DNA from: a virus
Virus record (IMG/VR): IMGVR_UViG_3300041964_000194
Location: 1-53,373 of that record
Direction: 5' to 3' (one strand)
Length of the DNA stretch: 53,373 nucleotides
Positions within the stretch are counted from its first letter, which is position 1. Every line of letters starts with the position of its first letter. The notes under the pieces are model-generated. The model did no database searches, was not told the origin of the DNA, and was given only the letters and a program-made list of their open reading frames with translations. The position numbers and the translations under genes are program-made. Shown one piece after another: positions 12,432-45,888 of the stretch.

Positions 12432-13396
12432 TAGCTATCACCAAGACTGTTAGGACACAGCATCCTTCAGAACCGACTCCATGACTTGCCGTAAAGAGCT
12501 AGAGCTAGACAAGCTTTTGCGAATGCGGCTTTTCAGCCAAGCCCAACACTTTTCAATCCGATTGAAATCTGGAGAATAAGCAGGTAGATACAACAAACGA
12601 CACCCCTTAAACTCAACCAGTTGAGCAATCCGTCCCCCATGATGAAACGTTGCGTTATCTAGAATCAAAACCTTTCCTGGCTTGAGTGTGGGCAGTAAAC
12701 AGGTTTCTAGCCAAGTTTCAAACACGACTCGATTACACGAACCATCGACGGTAAAAGCAGCACTCAATTGGTGCTCACAGTAAGCGGCGATCATATTGAT
12801 GCGTTCACTGCGCCGCCCTGACCTGAGTGCTTCAAAGCGCACTCCGCGTTCACACCAACCATAGGCATAATCGTCTCGTTCATCCATGCCTGATTCATCG
12901 AGATACACCCGGTCACAAACAGGCACCTGAGCAAGTTCTTCTAGAAATGCTGCTCGTTTGTCCTCATCCCGTTCTCGATAGCCATACGTCTTTTTTTTCG
13001 ACTCAAACCCAGCTTCTGTAACGCCCTGGCAATCGTACGGTCACTGATTGGGTCGTCCCACAACTGTGCCATCTGCTTTTGGGTTTTACCCCCATGCTGC
13101 TTAGCAAACTCGGCAAACTTGTCCCAATCGGTAATTTTGCTGGGCGTCTGATGCGGACGAGTGGTTTTGGCTTGATAATCTCCAGTGGTCTTCCGCCGCT
13201 TGAGCCACAAGTTGATGGTGTTGCGACTGATCCCAAACACTTGGGCAGCTTCGCTCTGCTTCATGCCGTCTAATTGGATGGCGTTGATCACCTTTTGTCG
13301 CAAGTCATAACTGTAGGCTTTTGCCATAAACACATTCAGGTTTTCTAGAGGGGGAGTTACCTCTAGTCTATGTCCTAACTGTCTTGGCGATAGCTA
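12432..13396 (-). mobile_element. IS630-family insertion sequence
   Basis: 965 bp. Terminal inverted repeats at 12432-12457 and 13371-13396 match at 24 of 26 positions (outer bases TAGCTATC). The element is flanked by TA (12430-12431 and 13397-13398), the target duplication expected for the Tc1/mariner-IS630 superfamily. It carries one minus-strand transposase in two frames. Inserted into the lysozyme gene. Confidence 0.9.
12450..13327 (-). CDS. IS630 transposase, two frames joined at an A8 run
   Basis: The first frame (from ATG 13327, MAKAYSYDLRQKVI) holds a helix-turn-helix (SEAAQVFGISRNTINLWL). The second frame holds the DDE catalytic triad: YLDESG, LDNATFHHGG and NRIEKCW. The coding strand has TCG followed by eight A and then GACG at 12991-12998, and a -1 slip on A AAA AAG joins the frames to give SRKKKTYGYRERDEDK. 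Such slippage is used by several IS families, but a homopolymer error would look the same. The stop lies within the left terminal repeat. Confidence 0.85.
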
Positions 13397-35148: not shown

Positions 35149-36383
35149 ATGCGCCTCTCCTACCAGTACCGCTTACGTCCAACCAAAGCTCAGATCGCCA
35201 TTATGGAGAACTGGCTTGAACTGCTGCGACGGCAGTACAACTACCGCTAGCGGAGCGGTTTCAACTGGTGGGAGCAAAATCGCTGTGATGTCAATGCTGC
35301 GCTCATCCGCCGTCTTCCCGCAGTTGCAGGATAAGCTCAGCCGCTAAAAGTCAGCAAGGCTGATTTGCTACTGACCAGAAGCGCGATGTTTCGTGAATAC
35401 GAAGACGCTGTATGCTCCTGTGCTATGGAGCGATTGCAAAGGGATGTATATGGGTGCTTCATTTGACGCGCGCGTTATTGCGTTTTATGGTAGATGAGAT
35501 TGTGGCGCTGGCTAGGGGACTGCCAGACGGCAGATCTGGTGTCAGGGATTAGATTTGAGCTGAGATTCAGAGCGTGCGGATCGCTGCTGTATCACTATCA
35601 GATTGTTCAGCTGATGGCATCATGAGCAGTTTACATGATCATTTTTGGGGTAGCGGTCAAGCTGAGCTGCATCGCCCTTCGATAAAGCGATCACCGTCAG
35701 GATACTGTCAGACTAGTTACGCGAGAGCTGATCGGTTGTATGGAAATCACTTCAGTGCTGATGCGATATGTGACCAGAACTCAGTCCCGGCGCGCAACAG
35801 TGGACAACACGATCGGCATTGACCTAGGCCTAAAGTCCTTTCTGGTCACAAGTGAGGTGAAGCGGTAGACATCCCCAGCGCTATCGCAAAGCTGAGAAGC
35901 GGCTGAAGCGGTTGCAGCGACAGTTATCCAAAAAGAAAAGGGGTCAAAGCGACGGGCTAAGGCAGTCAAGCGTGTTGCCAAAGCTCACCTAAAAGTTGCC
36001 AATCAGCGCCAAGATTTTCACCACAAAACGGTGAACTGGCTGCTAGCCAATCTAAGTTTATTGCTCATGAAGATCTCCATATCAGGGACTAGCGAGAACA
36101 AGGCTAGCCAAATCGATCAACGATGCGGGCTGGGTCAATTTCTGACAATTGCCGCTTACAAGGCTGAAGAGCTGGGGGCGGAACATTGCCAAGAAATCCG
36201 GCCAGAACCACGATCGACTGCTCAGACTGTGGGGCAGCAGTGCCAAAAACACTGTCTGACCGCTGGCATAATTGCGTGTGTGGTGCGTCCTACGATCGCG
36301 ACCACAACGCAGCCAGAAACATTAAGCAAAGGGCGGTGGGGCATCCCGTCCAGCTCCTGGAGGCGATCGGGATACGAGCCTGA
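35149..36383 (+). pseudogene. tnpB: TnpB (IS200/IS605-group nuclease), heavily decayed
   Basis: The start MRLSYQYRLRPTKAQIAIME and NWLELLRRQYNYR match cyanobacterial IS1341/IS891-type TnpB. Further fragments are TIGIDLGLKSFLVTSEG (RuvC I), RYRKAEKRLKRLQRQLSKKK, FHHKTVNWLL, and the C-terminal zinc finger and RuvC III: DCSDCGAAVPKTLSDRWHNC, CGASYDRDHNAARNI. TnpB is an RNA-guided endonuclease associated with these elements. Many indels and stop codons; no TnpA is present. Confidence 0.8.
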
Positions 36384-37126: not shown

Positions 37127-38053
37127 ATGAACAGAATTGAGTTTTTGCGTTTTCGCCGATCTTACGAGTGGGTATTGCGTCAAGTTCTACTAGATCTTGA
37201 ATTTTTTATTGAAGATTTAGTTGGAATTAATGTTTATGCAGTAACACATCGACTAAAGACTTTTGAAAGTGCTCTTGAAAAATCAAAGCGGCTTAATCTG
37301 AAAATTGATGAAATGCAAGACATCGCTGGCATTAGAATTGTTGTAGCAACTTCAGATGAAGTTGCGATTCTTGCTCGCTTCTTCTCTAGAAAGGCTGATT
37401 TAAAAGATCTCATTATCAAGTCAGACGAAATAATTGATAGAAAAAATGGTTATCGAGCAAGGCATTTAGTCTTAGAGTTCTCAGGGCACTATTCGCGCTC
37501 AATGCATTCAGCCTTTGTAGAAGTTCAAATTCTCACTCTTTTGCAAAGCACTTTCAATTATATTTCAAGAGCTTGGGTATACAAAGCTGATTGCGCATTA
37601 ACGGATACATGGCGCTCCAATTTCCAAAGATTATCCAGTGATTTGGCGGAAATCGATCAAAGAATTGCTCAGCTACAGAAGCAAGTTGTTGAATCCTCTG
37701 TATCTTCAGCGCCAAACGATCCTCTCACTCCTTTTTCTTACCAACAAATCGTTACTGAAACCTTCGGAGAAACCATCAAAATAAACGATGCAGTAGATAG
37801 CGTACAAATGTTAATTGATCTGGGTTGTGATACAAATGGAAAATTACAAGATTTCTTCGGAAGAAATGACATTTTAAACATGCGTGAACAGATTATAGCC
37901 ACGAAGTCAGAAGCTGGACAAGCTTTTGCAGAACTTGTAACTAGCCTGTCAATCCATAGTTTTTATATGATGTTTGGTCTTCGAGTTGACTCGACCAAAG
38001 AATTGATTCAATGGCTTAATCAAGCTAAGCCAAAAAATGAAAGCTCACAATAG
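37127..38053 (+). CDS. RelA/SpoT-domain nucleotidyltransferase (small alarmone synthetase / toxSAS-like)
   Basis: 308 residues, intact, AT-rich, GAGG five bases before the ATG. The synthetase core lies at about residues 45-165: KRLNLKIDEMQDIAGIRIVV (with the conserved D and R), DRKNGYRARHL, and FVEVQILTLLQSTFNYISR followed by AWVYK. There is no HD hydrolase or TGS domain. A helical C-terminal part of about 130 residues follows (LSIHSFYMMFGLRVDSTKEL). Such stand-alone enzymes make (p)ppGpp or act as toxins, pyrophosphorylating tRNA in phage defence. The usual His before YK is Arg here. Its neighbour at 38134 could be a partner. Confidence 0.85.
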   Translation: MNRIEFLRFRRSYEWVLRQVLLDLEFFIEDLVGINVYAVTHRLKTFESALEKSKRLNLKIDEMQDIAGIRIVVATSDEVAILARFFSRKADLKDLIIKSDEIIDRKNGYRARHLVLEFSGHYSRSMHSAFVEVQILTLLQSTFNYISRAWVYKADCALTDTWRSNFQRLSSDLAEIDQRIAQLQKQVVESSVSSAPNDPLTPFSYQQIVTETFGETIKINDAVDSVQMLIDLGCDTNGKLQDFFGRNDILNMREQIIATKSEAGQAFAELVTSLSIHSFYMMFGLRVDSTKELIQWLNQAKPKNESSQ

Positions 38054-38133
38054 TTCACACAGCTCAACAGCACTCACACACACCGATCGCCGAGGATTGA
38101 TTATTTCAGGAAAATTGAATTAATACGCTGAAC

Positions 38134-38569
38134 ATGACTGAACAAGAGAAGTGGGACTACATAAATAGGTTAGAGGAGGAGCTTTGCTGGGCGGTGTAGT
38201 TATCTCTGAGTGGTCAACTTTTCTTGCTAAAGATGCAGAGCTAGCATTTTGTTCAGGAGCTAATTTGGCGGCTATTCTAGCGGCACAAGCTGCTATTGAG
38301 TCCCATTTAAGATACGAGTACTTTGATCCGATTGAAACGAAAGGTTGGGGATTGTACCGCCTTCTTGAGAATGTGCAGTTACCACTTGGCTTAAAGAGCA
38401 ATTTACATAAGCTTAGACGTTTAGAAATCAGTGGGTGCATGTTGAAGATCCAGCTCACGATGCGGATCTCCTTAACAAGCCAGAGTACTATTCAGCAGAG
38501 CTAGAAGAAATGGCAAAACTAGCAATCGAATCTATGTTGAAAGTACTTTACGTAGAGCAGTCGGTATGA
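38134..38569 (+). CDS. Putative HEPN-like partner protein (frameshifted reading)
   Basis: About 144 residues when bases lost near 38185 and 38425 are restored: MTEQEKWDYINRLEEEL, LLGGVVISEWSTFLAKDAEL, NLAAILAAQAAIESHLRYEY, LKSNLHKLRRLRNQWVHVED, PEYYSAELEEMAKLAIESML, KVLYVEQSV. All-helical with RNQWVH, an R-x4-H pattern seen in HEPN-type domains and in DUF4145-like proteins. It follows the RelA/SpoT gene by 80 bp on the same strand, so they may form a two-gene system (inference). Confidence 0.55.
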
Positions 38570-38642: not shown

Positions 38643-39460
38643 TTAAAATAAAGTTCCTTGAACTATTTCTGGTTGTGCCTTACTTGGCTTAGGTGGCCAG
38701 AAAACACCGAGCACAACCCATGTATTGTATGGAAATACTGTGCCCATGAAGAAACGGGTATCCTTGCTTTCGTTACATAGCTCGTCAAGGAACTTGTGGC
38801 GAACGCTTAAAGCTGCTTGGTTTTCATCCCTCAAACGAGCTACTTCATTCAGCCAAAGCACCCCTAGCTCCCAGTCCTCAATCATGGCATTGTGAGGTTT
38901 GTTGCTATCATTGCATTCAAAAACATAGCTAAACTTGTACGGTATTTTGCGAAGAGGTTTTTGAACTGGTCCAAAAAGGGTCAATTGATCGAACAAAGCT
39001 TGCCATTCTGGTTTCCATTCAGGATCAGCGGGTTCAATCTTTAAATCAAGTATCCTTGTAGGCTGCACAATACCAAGTGATACATGTTCAGATTGATGCA
39101 GTTCCCGTAACTGCTTTACCGTATGAACCGAAATCCGATCGATAATTTGACGCCGCTCTCTCCATCCATCTTTGTGGAGAGCGGTTCTCCTAAAACGCGG
39201 AGCGTATCTAAAATCGGTTTTCTACTTTCTTTCCTCCGATCATTGCCAGCTCCCTGGGGAAAGAGATCAACTTCTATCCACTGATATTTACGGAATTGTT
39301 GATTTCTGGGTCTGTAACGGTAGTCTACTGGATAAAGCCGTACCCATTCGCCCTGTTCAGTTACACCAGCTGTACAAACAAGTTCTTGATAACCTCTAGA
39401 TGGATGTGGGTAGGTCATCACAGTAATAAGAACTTTAGTTCTGATTGCCTGATTACTCAT
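38643..39460 (-). CDS. Dual OB-fold domain protein (frameshifted reading)
   Basis: About 272 residues. ATG 39460 (MSNQAIRTKVLITVMTYPHP) lies two bases after the DUF488 stop. The N-terminal domain has LVCTAGVTEQGEWVRLYPVD and RYRPRNQQFRKYQWIEVDL; one base is lost near 39172, then WRERRQIIDRISVHTVKQLR leads to ILDLKIEPADPEWKPEWQAL and FMGTVFPYNTWVVLGVFWPP. The pattern of two beta-barrel domains with GEWVRLYPV is that of proteins found next to DUF488 genes; a nucleic-acid-binding role is plausible. Third gene of a minus operon. Confidence 0.65.
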
Positions 39461-39462
39461 GC

Positions 39463-39942
39463 CTAACATCCCAAATGCTTGATCGGCATATCGATTAAAG
39501 TTGTTAGGTGTTGAGCTAAAACATTGCGATGGCAAAATTTTGGATTAGCTTCCATACACACGAGGACACTAGGGTCAGATTGCAATAACCTACTTACATT
39601 GGTCAGATCCTTTTCACGAGAGGGAAGATTACAACGATAATTTTCAAACAGGGCTGTGTATTTATGATGAGAGTCTAGATGTTCTCGTTCTGAGCTTGGT
39701 ATTCCCAAACCAGGAAGGTGTTGATAGTCTATTTTCAAAGAGCTGCATAAGCGTAAAAGAGTACTTTTATGGAAACCATATCGGCGTGAAATGGGATTAT
39801 ATCGGACATCAATCAAACGTGATATACCGGATTCCATAAGAAGATTTAGAAACTCATCAACGGTTTTGCCTTCATAACCAGCAGTATAGATAGATGTCTC
39901 AGCAACTGGGCGTCTTCTCTTTTCTTCCTCCAGGAAGATCAC
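39463..39942 (-). CDS. DUF488-family protein
   Basis: 159 residues, intact. Family motifs are IYTAGYEGKTVDEFLNLL, LIDVRYNPISRRYGFHKSTL, the HLPGLGIP stretch, and the C-terminal Cys-containing VLVCMEANPKFCHRNVLAQH. DUF488 proteins have a rhodanese-like fold with conserved Arg, Cys and His; their reaction is not settled, and they often sit in defence-rich regions. The frame overlaps the upstream gene by 44 bp. The intact frame contrasts with the broken genes nearby. Confidence 0.85.
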   Translation of the reverse strand: MIFLEEEKRRRPVAETSIYTAGYEGKTVDEFLNLLMESGISRLIDVRYNPISRRYGFHKSTLLRLCSSLKIDYQHLPGLGIPSSEREHLDSHHKYTALFENYRCNLPSREKDLTNVSRLLQSDPSVLVCMEANPKFCHRNVLAQHLTTLIDMPIKHLGC

Positions 39943-40327
39943 TGTTGATTGTAAACCAAGAGTACTTGTCGTAAATTAGACTTATTAACTGTTGTCCAGA
40001 TAATTTCCCGTAAATCTCAGAAATTTGGCAAATATCTTTAGTGACATCATTTGGCAAATTTATTTCTAGTTCTTCCCTAAGAGTAAGATTCCATCGATTG
40101 TCAAGTCCTTTTTCCAGGAAACCATTACGAATAAGTGAATCGGTTTCCTGATTGAGAGTAAAGGAGTAAGGACCGTACCGATACGGAATGAATTGATAAA
40201 ACGTTTTCCCGCCATGAGATGGCGTTTCACAAGACAATAAAAATGCCCACTTCATTATTTGCAAGCTGGAAGCTGCACCTCCAACTTGCTGAAGCATCAT
40301 CAGTAGGGCTTTTTGTCGGTGTAACAC
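39899..40327 (-). CDS. Hypothetical protein, possible DUF4065 (Panacea)-like
   Basis: 142 residues, intact, first gene of the DUF488/dual-OB operon. Helix pair, then LQIMKWAFLLSCETPSHGGK, FYQFIPYRYGPYSFTLNQET, DSLIRNGFLEKGLDNRWNLT and a helical end. A leucine-rich helix followed by an aromatic-YGP-S motif is the shape of DUF4065/SocA-like (Panacea) proteins, which act as antitoxins and adaptors. The match is weak and by eye. Its start lies within AT-rich DNA; no operator seen. Confidence 0.5.
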   Translation of the reverse strand: MLHRQKALLMMLQQVGGAASSLQIMKWAFLLSCETPSHGGKTFYQFIPYRYGPYSFTLNQETDSLIRNGFLEKGLDNRWNLTLREELEINLPNDVTKDICQISEIYGKLSGQQLISLIYDKYSWFTINSDLPGGRKEKTPSC

Positions 40328-41117: not shown

Positions 41118-42233
41118 ATGGACGTTTCAGATCTTGTCGAGGCCGCAAACCAGAGGCTTAGGCTGGCACGGATTGCCGCGTCGATCGAGCTGCGCGGCAA
41201 AGAGCAGCGACTCTACCTGCGAGCCACACTGCCGCCAAAACCGGGACACCCGCGATCGTATCCCTACCAGCAACGCATTTGTCTGAACCTACTAGGAACA
41301 CCCAGAGCAGTGAAATTTGCAGAGGCGCAAGCAAAACTGCTGGGAGCGGAGCTGGAAACAAAAAGCTTTGATTGGAGCCGCTGGGACTATTCACCCCATC
41401 GCCCCACAGCAGAGACGATCGCGGACTGGGTGCAGCGATTTGAGGAGGATTTTTGGAGCCGGAGAGAGCGAGATTCTGGGCGAGAGGCAACCTGGAAGAA
41501 TTATCTGAAGGTATTTCGGCATCTACCACTCGATCGCCCGCTCACCAGTGAAGTGCTGCGAAAGCGAATTAAAGACACAGACGAAGACTCGCACCATCGA
41601 CTACAAACCACACTGGTGCTTTGGCGACTGGCGAAATTTGCTCAGATCAAGGGCTGGGAAGATTTGATCAAGTTGAAGGGCAGATACTCTCCCAAGCGAG
41701 TAAATCCTCGATCGCTGCCAACTGACGAGACGATTGCCAAGGTGCAGCAGTCGGTCAGCGACCCTGGCTGGGCATGGATTATCGGTATGCTTGCGGCTTA
41801 TGGTCTGCGCAATCACGAAGTTTTTAAGCTGGACTTGAGCCAGTTTCCCAACATCCGGGTGGAACCAACCAACAAGACTCGCTCTTCTAGGCTGATTTAT
41901 CCGCTGTATCCCGAATGGGCTGAGCGCTGGAAACTAGGCGATCGAGTTCTACCAAACGTACAAATTCGACCTGGGATGGGCAACTCTGCGCTGGGTGCCA
42001 AAATTACGGCGGCGTTCTGGTATCAAGATTTGCCTTTCACGGCCTACGACTTGCGCCACTGCTTTGCCCGCCGCTGCTTCGAGTTCGGCATTCCGATCGA
42101 GACCGCAGCTCGACTGCTGGGGCACTCGGTCGATCGCCATCGGGAGACCTATCAGGCGTGGATTGGCGAATCATCGCACCGGTTTGCCTATGAGCGGCAA
42201 ATTAACAGGAGCGATCGACCTCTGCCGCCCTAA
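41118..42233 (+). CDS. int: Phage integrase (tyrosine recombinase)
   Basis: 371 residues, intact. An N-terminal arm-binding region (about 1-60) precedes a core-binding domain (TAETIADWVQRFEEDFWSRR, about 95-180) and the catalytic domain: Arg in AYGLRNHEVF, Lys near NKTRSSR, box II YDLRHCFARR (the usual first His is Tyr), LGHSVDRHRETY with the nucleophile Tyr, then AWIGESS. It would catalyse insertion at the tRNA 3' end. It converges with the 42493 gene, their stops overlapping by 3 bp. Confidence 0.9.
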   Translation: MDVSDLVEAANQRLRLARIAASIELRGKEQRLYLRATLPPKPGHPRSYPYQQRICLNLLGTPRAVKFAEAQAKLLGAELETKSFDWSRWDYSPHRPTAETIADWVQRFEEDFWSRRERDSGREATWKNYLKVFRHLPLDRPLTSEVLRKRIKDTDEDSHHRLQTTLVLWRLAKFAQIKGWEDLIKLKGRYSPKRVNPRSLPTDETIAKVQQSVSDPGWAWIIGMLAAYGLRNHEVFKLDLSQFPNIRVEPTNKTRSSRLIYPLYPEWAERWKLGDRVLPNVQIRPGMGNSALGAKITAAFWYQDLPFTAYDLRHCFARRCFEFGIPIETAARLLGHSVDRHRETYQAWIGESSHRFAYERQINRSDRPLPP

Positions 42234-43139: not shown

Positions 43140-43525
43140 CAGCTCACCTCCGAGGCGATCGCGCCACTGAACGCCCGCGCAAACGATTCGGTTGCCTGTT
43201 GCAGGTCGGGATCGACCCACCATTTGGGGTTGCAGCGAACCTCGACCTTGCGGCCGTCGGTGGTGAGTGTCAGCGTTGCACCATCCCGAATGACAGAGAT
43301 GAGCGTGCCGCCAAAGCTAACGATCGCCACCGAGTTGAGGTGGGTCAGGTGATTGGCTGGCTCGCATTCTTCGAGCAGGTACTCGGTCGCCTGCTGGCCG
43401 CGTGGAGCATCGAGCAAGTAGAGGCGGAGCGATCGCCGGATGCGGTGTTCGCAGAAAAACAAAACGTTCTGCGGTTTGTGTCGAATCAAGGCTTTAGGGC
43501 GAACCCAGTCGGGGAATTTGCTCAC
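43139..43525 (-). CDS. Hypothetical early protein (128 aa)
   Basis: Intact. MSKFPDWVRPKALIRHKPQN, LFFCEHRIRRSLRLYLLDAP, LISVIRDGATLTLTTDGRKV and a helical end. Overlaps the primase gene end by 4 bp and the ASCH start by 1 bp. Mixed alpha/beta without a recognised motif. Confidence 0.55.
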   Translation of the reverse strand: MSKFPDWVRPKALIRHKPQNVLFFCEHRIRRSLRLYLLDAPRGQQATEYLLEECEPANHLTHLNSVAIVSFGGTLISVIRDGATLTLTTDGRKVEVRCNPKWWVDPDLQQATESFARAFSGAIASEVS

Positions 43526-45888
43526 GATTCGTTTTCCCAGGGAATGTCTTCGTAGTCGTCTTCTGTCGCTTCTGACCGACTTGATGCACCGCTTTCGGAG
43601 GTGGGTCGGGAGGTGGGTCGCGCTAAAAGTGCTGAATTTTCGACACTTCCATCTTCTTTAGACCCACCTGACCCACCTGACCTACCTATTTGAAAGAAAG
43701 AAAGTCCGGGAAAAGTTGAAATTAGCGGCGGCGAATGATTTTCTTTTTGTTTGGTAGTTGATGCTGCCCCAAAAGGTTGGTCAGGTTGGTCGGCGATCGC
43801 CTGACTGTTTGCCTCGCTTGAGTTTGAGGTGTGACCCACCTCTGACAATACAGGTTGGTCAGGCGGGTCAGGTTGGTCGGGAGCCAGCCAAATTCGCAGC
43901 CGCTCCAGTCCTTTGCGAGCTTTGCGCCACCCAGCCATTCGCAGAATGTCGGCCACGCGCATCAGCATCCCCCGGTCTTGCCGTCCGGGTTCGATTTTGA
44001 GAACTTGGTCAAGGATGCTGCGGGTGGTCGTTTCCTTCAGTCCACTGAGTTCGGGCAGAATCACTTCTTGCCACGGGTCAGAGGTTTGGTACTCGGCGGC
44101 GATCGAGGCGGCGATCGTGTCCTCGTCCTGGGTCAAGTGCCACTGCTCCCCAGCTTTGTAGAGGGCGACTGCCGCAGCCCAGATGCGATCGCGTTCTGCT
44201 CCAACCGCTGGATATCGATCGGCTTCCGCAGTGGGACAACCCAAAAACGGCGGCTCCCAGTTGGGTCGCTCAAGAACTCGTCTTGGTTGGTCGTCCCGCA
44301 GATGACGCTGTGGCGCGGCATCCGCTCAACCTCGCGGCCATAGGGCGGACGCAGGTTGTCGGCAACTGAGGTCATGAACTGCTTGGTCTGACCGATCTCG
44401 CGGCGCTTGAAAATCGCCTCAATTTCGCCCCACTCAGCGAACCAGGTGCGATGCAGCTTCAGTCGCTCATCTTTGTCGGACGCATTGCCAAGCGAATCGT
44501 CGAACCAGTCAGGACTTGCCAGCGTCCGAAAGAAACTGGTTTTTTTGAAGCCTTGCTGGGCGCTCTGCAAGACGAGCGCTGTGTCCGCTTGGCAACCGGG
44601 ATTGAGGGCGCGGGCGACGGCAGCGATTAGTGTGCGTTTGGCAAAGACGTTGTAAATCGGTGCAGGTTGGCCGAAGTAGCGTACTGCAAAGGGTTCAAGC
44701 TCGATCGAGCCATCTGCTGCTGTAATGCCATCCAGAATGCTCGTGTCACTGCCGTGCCGCTGGTAGACCGGCTTCGAGGTATTCAGCAACCGGACTGTAG
44801 GCGTTGCGCTCTGCGAGTTCGCGAATAAACTCTTCGACATCTTCGCGCTTGAGTCCAATGTCGTGCTCGGTTGCTAGCTTCAGCCGCCACCGGCGCATTG
44901 GAAATGGCTTGCCATCTAGCTCGATCTGCTGGGTCAGTGTGTTGAGCCGCAGCCGCTTGCCCAGCAGCCGCTCGACTTTCTTAAATTGCAGGGCGATTTC
45001 GTTGGTTGGCTCTGGCTGCTCTGTGGCCGATGCTCGCTTCTTGCGATCGACGATCTGCTGTTGAGTTGCCAGCTCCCGTCTGAGCGTCTTGATGCCAAGG
45101 TTGGGGCATTCGGTCGCCACAACACCTAGCAGCAAATCTTGCTCTAATGCGGGCAGGTAAAGCGCTGCCAGTCGGAACAGCGATTTGACGCACCGCCCTA
45201 GCTTCTGAATGGGTAGCTTATCCCAGCGCTTGGGCAGCTCCAGCAGGAACTCGAGGGCTTCATTGCCAGCTTTAGCATTCGCTGATAGTCGCCAGCGGTG
45301 CGGCCTGACTTGAAGTACTCGCAGAGTCCAGCCTTTGGTTCGCCAGAATCTCCGGCACAAGCTGGATTTTGCCGCGCAGATAGTAGCCAGCGTGGACCAG
45401 GTTTGAGAAGACCTGCGGATTGGTCCAGCCATCGGCGTCGAAGACGATCGTCTCGCCACTGCCCTGCTTGAGCGCTTTGCGGTAGTGACTGACGCCTGCC
45501 AGCGCACCAGTGGCGATGCCGCCATGCAGCGTGCCCGCTGCCGCATCTTTAAAGCCCTCGGTGAGCACGCGACAGTTTGGCTCTGGCCTCCAGACTTGCG
45601 ATCGCGCCCCAACCGGGGTGAGATATTTGGCTGTGTCGCCGTTCGATCGCACCATGGCACATCGCACCGGAGCTGACTAAACGTGGACGTGAACGGGAAG
45701 TAGAGGCCATCTGACGATCGCCAGTGATTTCCCTCTTGGTCCCAGATTTTGAGATTCAAGGCTACAGCTTCGGCGGCGGTGAGCGATCGCACGCCCAGGC
45801 GCTGAAGCTGCTCGATCTGGTCGGGGGTAAAGCCTTCGCTAGTGAGGTGAGCGATGTGGCTTGCCGTGAGAGTGGAAGTTGCTTGCAT
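43522..45888 (-). CDS. VapE-type primase-helicase with DUF3854 TOPRIM domain (frameshifted reading)
   Basis: About 789 residues on the minus strand with shifts near 45665, 45300, 44770 and 44190. The N-terminus is HIAHLTSEGFTPDQIEQLQR; the DUF3854/TOPRIM part has CRVLTEGFKDAAAGTLHGGI, VSHYRKALKQ and ETIVFDADGWTNPQVF. The helicase part has Walker A-like LVLQSAQQGFKKTSFFRTLA, HRTWFAEWGEIEAIFKR, HSVICGTTNQDEFLSDPTGS and RRFWVVPL (VirE type). A Ser/Pro-rich acidic tail ends it. It should prime and unwind phage DNA. It is the core of the early operon. Confidence 0.8.

What the first reader, a model, noticed from the sequence alone, without database searches (positions are those of the whole stretch)
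38643..40327. Three-gene operon: DUF4065-like, DUF488, dual OB-fold
The genes overlap or abut (44-bp overlap, 2-bp gap) and converge on the RelA/SpoT pair inside a defence-like island. DUF488 and dual-OB proteins are recurrent neighbours with unknown chemistry. Coupling to a possible Panacea-like adaptor suggests a nucleic-acid-sensing or toxin-control system.
Basis: partly seen in the sequence, partly recalled or inferred. Interest (0 to 1): 0.6.

Follow-up and report, generated by a model that had tools for sequence, protein, structure and literature searches.

The report
Broken prophage copy of PDC-M19 pair
A cyanobacterial prophage carries, beside its chromosome attachment site, a frameshifted copy of a known but untested two-gene candidate anti-phage system: an enzyme domain fused to an adaptor-like domain, plus a DNA-binding-type partner that temperate phages often carry.

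Summary
The sequence is real, but it is two genes, not three. In every full-length homologue, the 'DUF4065-like' ORF and the DUF488 ORF form one protein of about 290 residues. The window splits it with one extra base near 39,920, which creates the '44-bp overlap'. The dual-OB gene has lost one base near 39,173. PADLOC names both products: PDC-M19A (E 4e-83) and PDC-M19B (E 9e-86), a two-gene phage-defence candidate. The N-terminal domain is a remote relative of DUF4065/Panacea (profile-profile probability 93%, controls at most 5%). DUF488 is confirmed, with an invariant C-x-E-x5-C-H-R motif. The partner models as tandem OB domains resembling RPA, telomere-end-binding proteins and HIN-200.

The window is a prophage-like virus record. 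The operon lies about 200 bp from a tRNA-Pro(GGG) 3' half, an integrase att core, so it is terminal cargo. The pair recurs on viral contigs (47 of 54 loci have both genes side by side) and in the isolated Gordonia phage Nymphadora. One copy sits between Mod and Res of a type III restriction operon. Most likely function: lysogen-expressed defence in which the OB protein binds phage DNA and DUF488 acts on it. That is inference. Known candidate; damaged member.

The parts
39463..40327 (-). Gene A (PDC-M19A-like): N-terminal Panacea-like winged-helix domain fused to DUF488; one gene in all homologues, split here by a frameshift
   Evidence: Single 288-290 aa ORF in L002-L005; PADLOC PDLC04505 E 4e-83 for the intact homologue; 1-nt insertion seen
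39924..40327 (-). N-terminal domain of A (remote DUF4065/SocA_Panacea relative)
   Evidence: No Pfam hit; hhalign prob 93%, P 3.4e-7 to the SocA_Panacea profile, controls at most 5%
39463..39918 (-). DUF488 domain of A with the C-x-E-x5-C-H-R motif
   Evidence: PF04343 E 1.1e-22; invariant motif in A3; PTP-fold Foldseek neighbours
39919..39923 (.). Frameshift 1: one extra A in an A-run relative to L002/L003
38643..39460 (-). Gene B (PDC-M19B-like), dual-OB protein, 2 bp after A, split by a frameshift into ORFs 39116-39535 and 38643-39068
   Evidence: 275 aa intact in L002/L003; PDLC04508 E 9e-86; AF2 and Foldseek tandem OB
39172..39175 (.). Frameshift 2: one base missing relative to L002/L003
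40524..40569 (+). 3' half of tRNA-Pro(GGG), from anticodon loop to acceptor end: att core, about 200 bp upstream of gene A
   Evidence: One mismatch to the tRNA-Pro genes in L171/L172 recognised by ARAGORN; no whole tRNA in window
41118..42233 (+). Tyrosine integrase adjacent to the att core
   Evidence: phrog_1 integrase E 1.4e-17; PF00589 below cut-off

Best explanation
It is a prophage-borne copy of the two-gene candidate anti-phage system PDC-M19, currently out of frame. Shown here: gene A fuses a Panacea-like domain (predicted winged helix) to a DUF488 Rossmannoid enzyme domain; gene B is a tandem-OB protein; A and B (or DUF488 and B) almost always travel together and are recurrent cargo of temperate phages. 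Inferred mechanism: the dual-OB protein binds single-stranded DNA or a DNA end exposed during infection by a second phage. It brings the DUF488 enzyme to it. DUF488 uses its C-x-E-x5-C-H-R site, in the position of the PTP/rhodanese catalytic loop, for a phosphotransfer or end-processing reaction that blocks replication or packaging of that DNA. The optional Panacea-like domain holds the enzyme in check or docks it to a partner until DNA is sensed. In this window the pair sits at the integrase-proximal end of the prophage, the usual place for genes that protect the lysogen. This copy may not work, because both genes carry frameshifts, unless these are assembly errors.
For: PADLOC PDC-M19A/B at E 4e-83 and 9e-86. 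DUF488 and dual-OB adjacent in 47 of 54 viral loci in several gene arrangements, with the N-domain optional but never separate. Independent insertions into phage structural clusters: Mu-like gpG/I-protease (L115, L119), terminase/portal (L101), tail tube/tape measure (L107). In phage Nymphadora, DUF488 (gp42, E 2e-26) and dual-OB (gp43) lie beside immunity repressor gp44. A-B lies between Mod and Res of a type III restriction operon (L112) and next to type I (L140) and type ISP (L056) systems. Dual-OB fold neighbours are ssDNA and DNA-end binders or DNA sensors. DUF488 fold neighbours are PTP phosphatases. dN/dS is about 0.10 across the window copy, on both sides of both frameshifts.
Against: No activity has been measured here, and no paper in the held library names PDC-M19. 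Methylase-motif neighbours are not significantly enriched (5/177 near vs 1/186 far, p = 0.11). Ten cyanobacterial-phylum chromosomes keep a B-DUF488 pair among mostly housekeeping genes, which fits repair or modification as well as defence. Foldseek support for DUF488 as PTP-like is weak (E 0.03). The window copy is broken.
Confidence: 0.55

Rival explanations
1. Toxin-antitoxin-like abortive system: DUF488 is a toxic enzyme held in check by its fused Panacea-like domain and/or the dual-OB partner, and is released on infection.
For: DUF4065/Panacea domains are antitoxins of many toxins (PMC8832971). The N-domain is remotely Panacea. Gene starts and stops abut or overlap as in TA operons.
Against: The Panacea-like domain is absent from about half of the loci (D-B only), so it cannot be the obligatory antitoxin. 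PanA antitoxins form two-gene loci with their toxins (PMC8832971), whereas here the domain is fused. Convergent D/B arrangements are unusual for TA operons.
Confidence: 0.2
2. Phage-beneficial function, such as anti-restriction, DNA-end protection or repair for the carrier phage, rather than defence of the lysogen.
For: Location inside phage structural clusters; dual-OB similarity to end-protecting telomere proteins; proximity to a phage methylase in L161.
Against: Also present alone in bacterial chromosomes with unrelated flanks, on plasmids, beside an immunity repressor in Nymphadora, and embedded in a restriction operon (L112).
Confidence: 0.15
3. Ordinary housekeeping or tRNA/DNA metabolism genes picked up by chance.
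For: Chromosomal relatives lie between housekeeping genes (L002, L003, L005, L059-L066). DUF488 is a very common family.
Against: Patchy distribution: full-length A in 5 and B in 16 of 386 genomes of the phylum. L002/L003 share the cassette with unrelated flanks. Recurrence on viral contigs.
Confidence: 0.1

Closest known systems
PDC-M19 (PADLOC-DB 2.0 phage-defence candidate; PDLC04505/PDLC04508)
   Same: Both genes match over full length in the intact homologues, and the two genes are adjacent
   Different: The window copy is frameshifted in both genes; it is on a prophage next to an att site
DUF488 family (PF04343) and the RapZ-C/DUF488 clade of the rhodanese-phosphatase superfamily (the latter from memory: Burroughs and Aravind 2023, not held)
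   Same: Pfam hit above cut-off, CHR motif, PTP-like fold neighbours
   Different: Fused to a Panacea-like N-domain; paired with a dual-OB protein
Panacea/DUF4065 (SocA, PanA antitoxins; PF13274)
   Same: Remote profile-profile similarity over 111 columns, including the YGP-type motif and the final Y..YPW-type motif
   Different: No Pfam-level match; fused to an enzyme; not in a toxin-antitoxin bicistron
Tandem-OB nucleic-acid binders: RPA, telomere end-binding protein, POT1, HIN-200 (IFI16/p204)
   Same: AF2 model of B aligns with these tandem OB folds (E 3e-5 to 1e-3 for the best)
   Different: About 10% identity; additional invariant D-x-R-x-E and DWE residues; bacterial; no binding shown
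PDC-M45 (PADLOC)
   Same: Its B and C components match A's DUF488 domain (best E 2e-15)
   Different: Weaker match than PDC-M19A; the dual-OB protein matches M19B

Membership tests
PDC-M19 | A component matches PDC-M19A over full length | tested here: met
   Intact homologue L002: PDLC04505 E 4.2e-83, residues 1-285 of 288 to profile 1-293/294; the window first ORF is 87% identical to it but the gene is frameshifted
PDC-M19 | B component matches PDC-M19B and is adjacent | tested here: met
   PDLC04508 E 8.9e-86 for the L002 homologue; 2-bp gap in window
PDC-M19 | Both genes intact in the window | tested here: not met
   One frameshift in each gene
PDC-M19 | Confers phage protection | not testable with these tools
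   Needs experiment; no paper naming it is held
DUF488 (PF04343) | Pfam score over the gathering cut-off | tested here: met
   81.4 bits vs 22.2
DUF488 (PF04343) | Conserved C-x-E ... C-H-R motif | tested here: met
   Invariant in 25 fused proteins; present in the window ORF as VCMEANPKFCHR
DUF4065/Panacea (PF13274) | Pfam gathering-level match | tested here: not met
   No hit at E up to 1 or 5
DUF4065/Panacea (PF13274) | Homologous fold/profile | tested here: met
   hhalign 93%, P 3.4e-7; other-domain controls at 0.1-5.1%, reversed profiles 0.2%
DUF4065/Panacea (PF13274) | Two-gene toxin-antitoxin arrangement (PanAT) | tested here: not met
   The domain is fused to DUF488 in every locus with it; absent from about half of D-B loci
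Dual-OB | Two OB barrels | tested here: met
   AF2 pLDDT 89.8; best PDB neighbours are tandem-OB proteins RPA, TEBP, HIN-200
Dual-OB | Nucleic-acid binding | not testable with these tools
   Needs binding assay

The most novel reading that the evidence does not exclude
The pair is a bacterial DNA-end or ssDNA-sensing immune module. A HIN-200/telomere-protein-like tandem-OB sensor directs a DUF488 enzyme with a so-far undescribed phosphotransfer or end-modification chemistry onto invading DNA, gated by a Panacea-like domain, and it is spread mainly by temperate phages protecting their lysogens.
Probability: 0.3. Interest if true: 0.75.

Novelty: new member of a known kind. Interest (0 to 1): 0.42.

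Why it matters
PDC-M19 is a bioinformatic candidate without a mechanism in the papers held here. This work adds a testable anatomy: DUF488 plus tandem-OB is the core, and the Panacea-like domain is an optional fused part. It also shows that temperate phages are frequent carriers, and it finds an isolated, culturable phage (Gordonia phage Nymphadora, host G. terrae 3612) in which the pair lies next to the immunity repressor. A knock-out in that phage would make the function and the unknown chemistry of DUF488 directly testable. For the window itself it corrects a three-gene reading to a two-gene, frameshifted one.

Tried and rejected
A single-protein scan of viral contigs with the window DUF488 found nothing; alignments were needed. 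Pfam and NCBIfam gave no family above cut-off for the N-domain or the dual-OB protein. phmmer against PDB gave nothing. Three separate genes: rejected by homologues. Programmed frameshifting: rejected, since relatives are single in-frame ORFs at those places. A whole tRNA at the att site: none by ARAGORN or Rfam; the 3' half was recognised by comparison with real tRNA-Pro genes. Functional coupling with RelA/SpoT: no obvious such neighbour in the relatives inspected by eye. Enrichment of methylase neighbours: suggestive only, p = 0.11. Terminal repeats of the contig: none. The 2023 rhodanese-phosphatase paper is not held, so its predictions are cited from memory only.

Full report
What is in the sequence. 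The window is a 53,373-base IMG/VR virus record. PHROGs and Pfam identify a terminase, major head protein, minor head protein, tape measure, VapE primase-helicase, a repressor and two integrases, so it is a prophage-like genome.

Two genes, not three. A scan of bacterial genomes with the first ORF found four relatives, all cyanobacterial. In each, the first ORF and DUF488 form one uninterrupted protein of 288-290 residues, and where the contig continues, the dual-OB gene follows at once. Aligning the window with L002 and L003 shows one extra A in an A-run near 39,920 and one missing base near 39,173. These two events create the apparent 44-bp overlap and cut the dual-OB gene in two. A phylum survey of 386 genomes found five full-length fused A proteins, none with internal stops. 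In viral loci the N-domain occurs only fused to DUF488. The codons on both sides of both frameshifts show dN/dS of about 0.10 against L003, so the gene was under purifying selection until recently. Whether the frameshifts are decay or sequencing error is open. The VapE gene of the same contig is also split into three ORFs matching contiguous parts of one profile, while terminase, capsid, minor head and integrase ORFs are long and open.

Identity. PADLOC-DB names the intact homologues PDC-M19A (E 4e-83) and PDC-M19B (E 9e-86), the two components of a phage-defence candidate. No paper naming it is in the held library. The PADLOC candidate sets are, as I recall, from Payne et al. 2024 (bioRxiv 10.1101/2024.01.29.577857, seen only as a citation); that PDC-M19 comes from that preprint is my recollection and was not checked.

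Domains. DUF488 is a clear Pfam hit. Across 25 fused proteins the motif C-x-E-x5-C-H-R is invariant. In the AF2 model (pLDDT 93.3) the first Cys (258) ends a strand and the Arg (268) starts the next helix, as in PTP/rhodanese active sites (general knowledge), and PTP-fold phosphatases are the best Foldseek neighbours, though only at E 0.03. The N-terminal domain has no Pfam match, but its profile aligns with SocA_Panacea (DUF4065) at 93% probability over 111 columns; controls with other domains and reversed profiles gave 0.1-5%. It also resembles the end of some type I specificity subunits (E 3e-10), and more weakly DarG. The partner models as two OB barrels (pLDDT 89.8); its PDB neighbours are RPA, telomere end-binding protein, POT1 and HIN-200 domains.

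Neighbourhoods. Profile-guided scans of viral contigs gave 36 loci for A and 34 for B. After removing second hits on the same contigs, 54 loci remain and 47 have both DUF488 and dual-OB side by side: 22 fused A then B, 12 DUF488 then B on one strand, 12 convergent, and 1 B then DUF488. Some of these are near-duplicates of each other. Several are inserted in phage structural clusters: between the Mu-like gpG and protease genes, between terminase and portal, and between tail tube and tape measure. The isolated Gordonia phage Nymphadora and its relatives carry gp43 (dual-OB) directly after immunity repressor gp44 and convergent with gp42, which is annotated as HipA but matches DUF488. In L112 the pair lies between the Mod and Res genes of a type III restriction operon; in L140 it precedes a type I system; in L056 it adjoins a type ISP enzyme. 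A motif-based count of methylase neighbours was not significant. In the 386-genome survey dual-OB occurs in 16 genomes: 5 with fused A, 10 with a separate adjacent DUF488, mostly among housekeeping genes, and one cut by a contig end. L002 and L003 share the cassette and about 45 bp upstream but not the flanks, which indicates horizontal transfer as a unit.

Position in this prophage. Window 40524-40569 matches, with one mismatch, the anticodon-loop-to-3' half of the tRNA-Pro(GGG) gene of a cyanobacterium (L172; L171 is close too), and a tyrosine integrase lies just beyond. This is an att core. The pair is about 200 bp from it, at the end of the element where lysogen-benefit cargo usually sits (the last point is general knowledge). 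Whether the contig shows attP of an excised form or attR of an integrated one could not be settled.

Mechanism. The step 'OB protein recognises exposed DNA, DUF488 acts on it, Panacea-like domain regulates' is inference from folds, conserved residues and company kept. Alternatives are a toxin-antitoxin-like system, a phage-beneficial end-protection function, or housekeeping; each is weighed in the rivals section.

Verdict. The finding is real but misread in gene count. It is a damaged member of a known candidate system. Its value lies in the clearer anatomy, the recurrent temperate-phage carriage, and a culturable phage in which to test it.

Noticed in passing
window 37127-38569 (+): RelA/SpoT-domain ORF (37127-38053; PADLOC PDC-S33 E 3e-19) followed by a small ORF (38184-38504) whose other frame continues with RNQWVH, an Rx4H HEPN-like motif; this second gene also looks frameshifted near 38411. 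Possibly a HEPN-nucleotidyltransferase-type toxin-antitoxin pair; no Pfam or PADLOC match to the second gene.
   Followed up: partly
window 43522-45888 (-): VapE primase-helicase split into three ORFs matching contiguous parts of phrog_36873: at least two more frameshifts, so either a decayed prophage or assembly errors.
   Followed up: partly
window 36186-36383 (+): Remnant of a TnpB gene (Cas12f1-like TNB zinc domain, E 1.6e-10).
   Followed up: no
window 12450-13333 (-): IS630-type transposase in two ORFs inserted in the phage structural region (DDE_3 hit for the second ORF).
   Followed up: no
L173 4831-5283 (Gordonia phage Nymphadora gp42): Annotated 'HipA toxin' but matches the DUF488 profile (E 2e-26), not tested against HipA; probable misannotation.
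   Followed up: partly
L112 5620-12397: PDC-M19-like pair embedded between the Mod and Res genes of a type III restriction-modification operon on a viral contig.
   Followed up: partly
L004 8870-9604: The dual-OB gene of Kaiparowitsia has a premature TAA near its 3' end: another possibly decayed copy.
   Followed up: no
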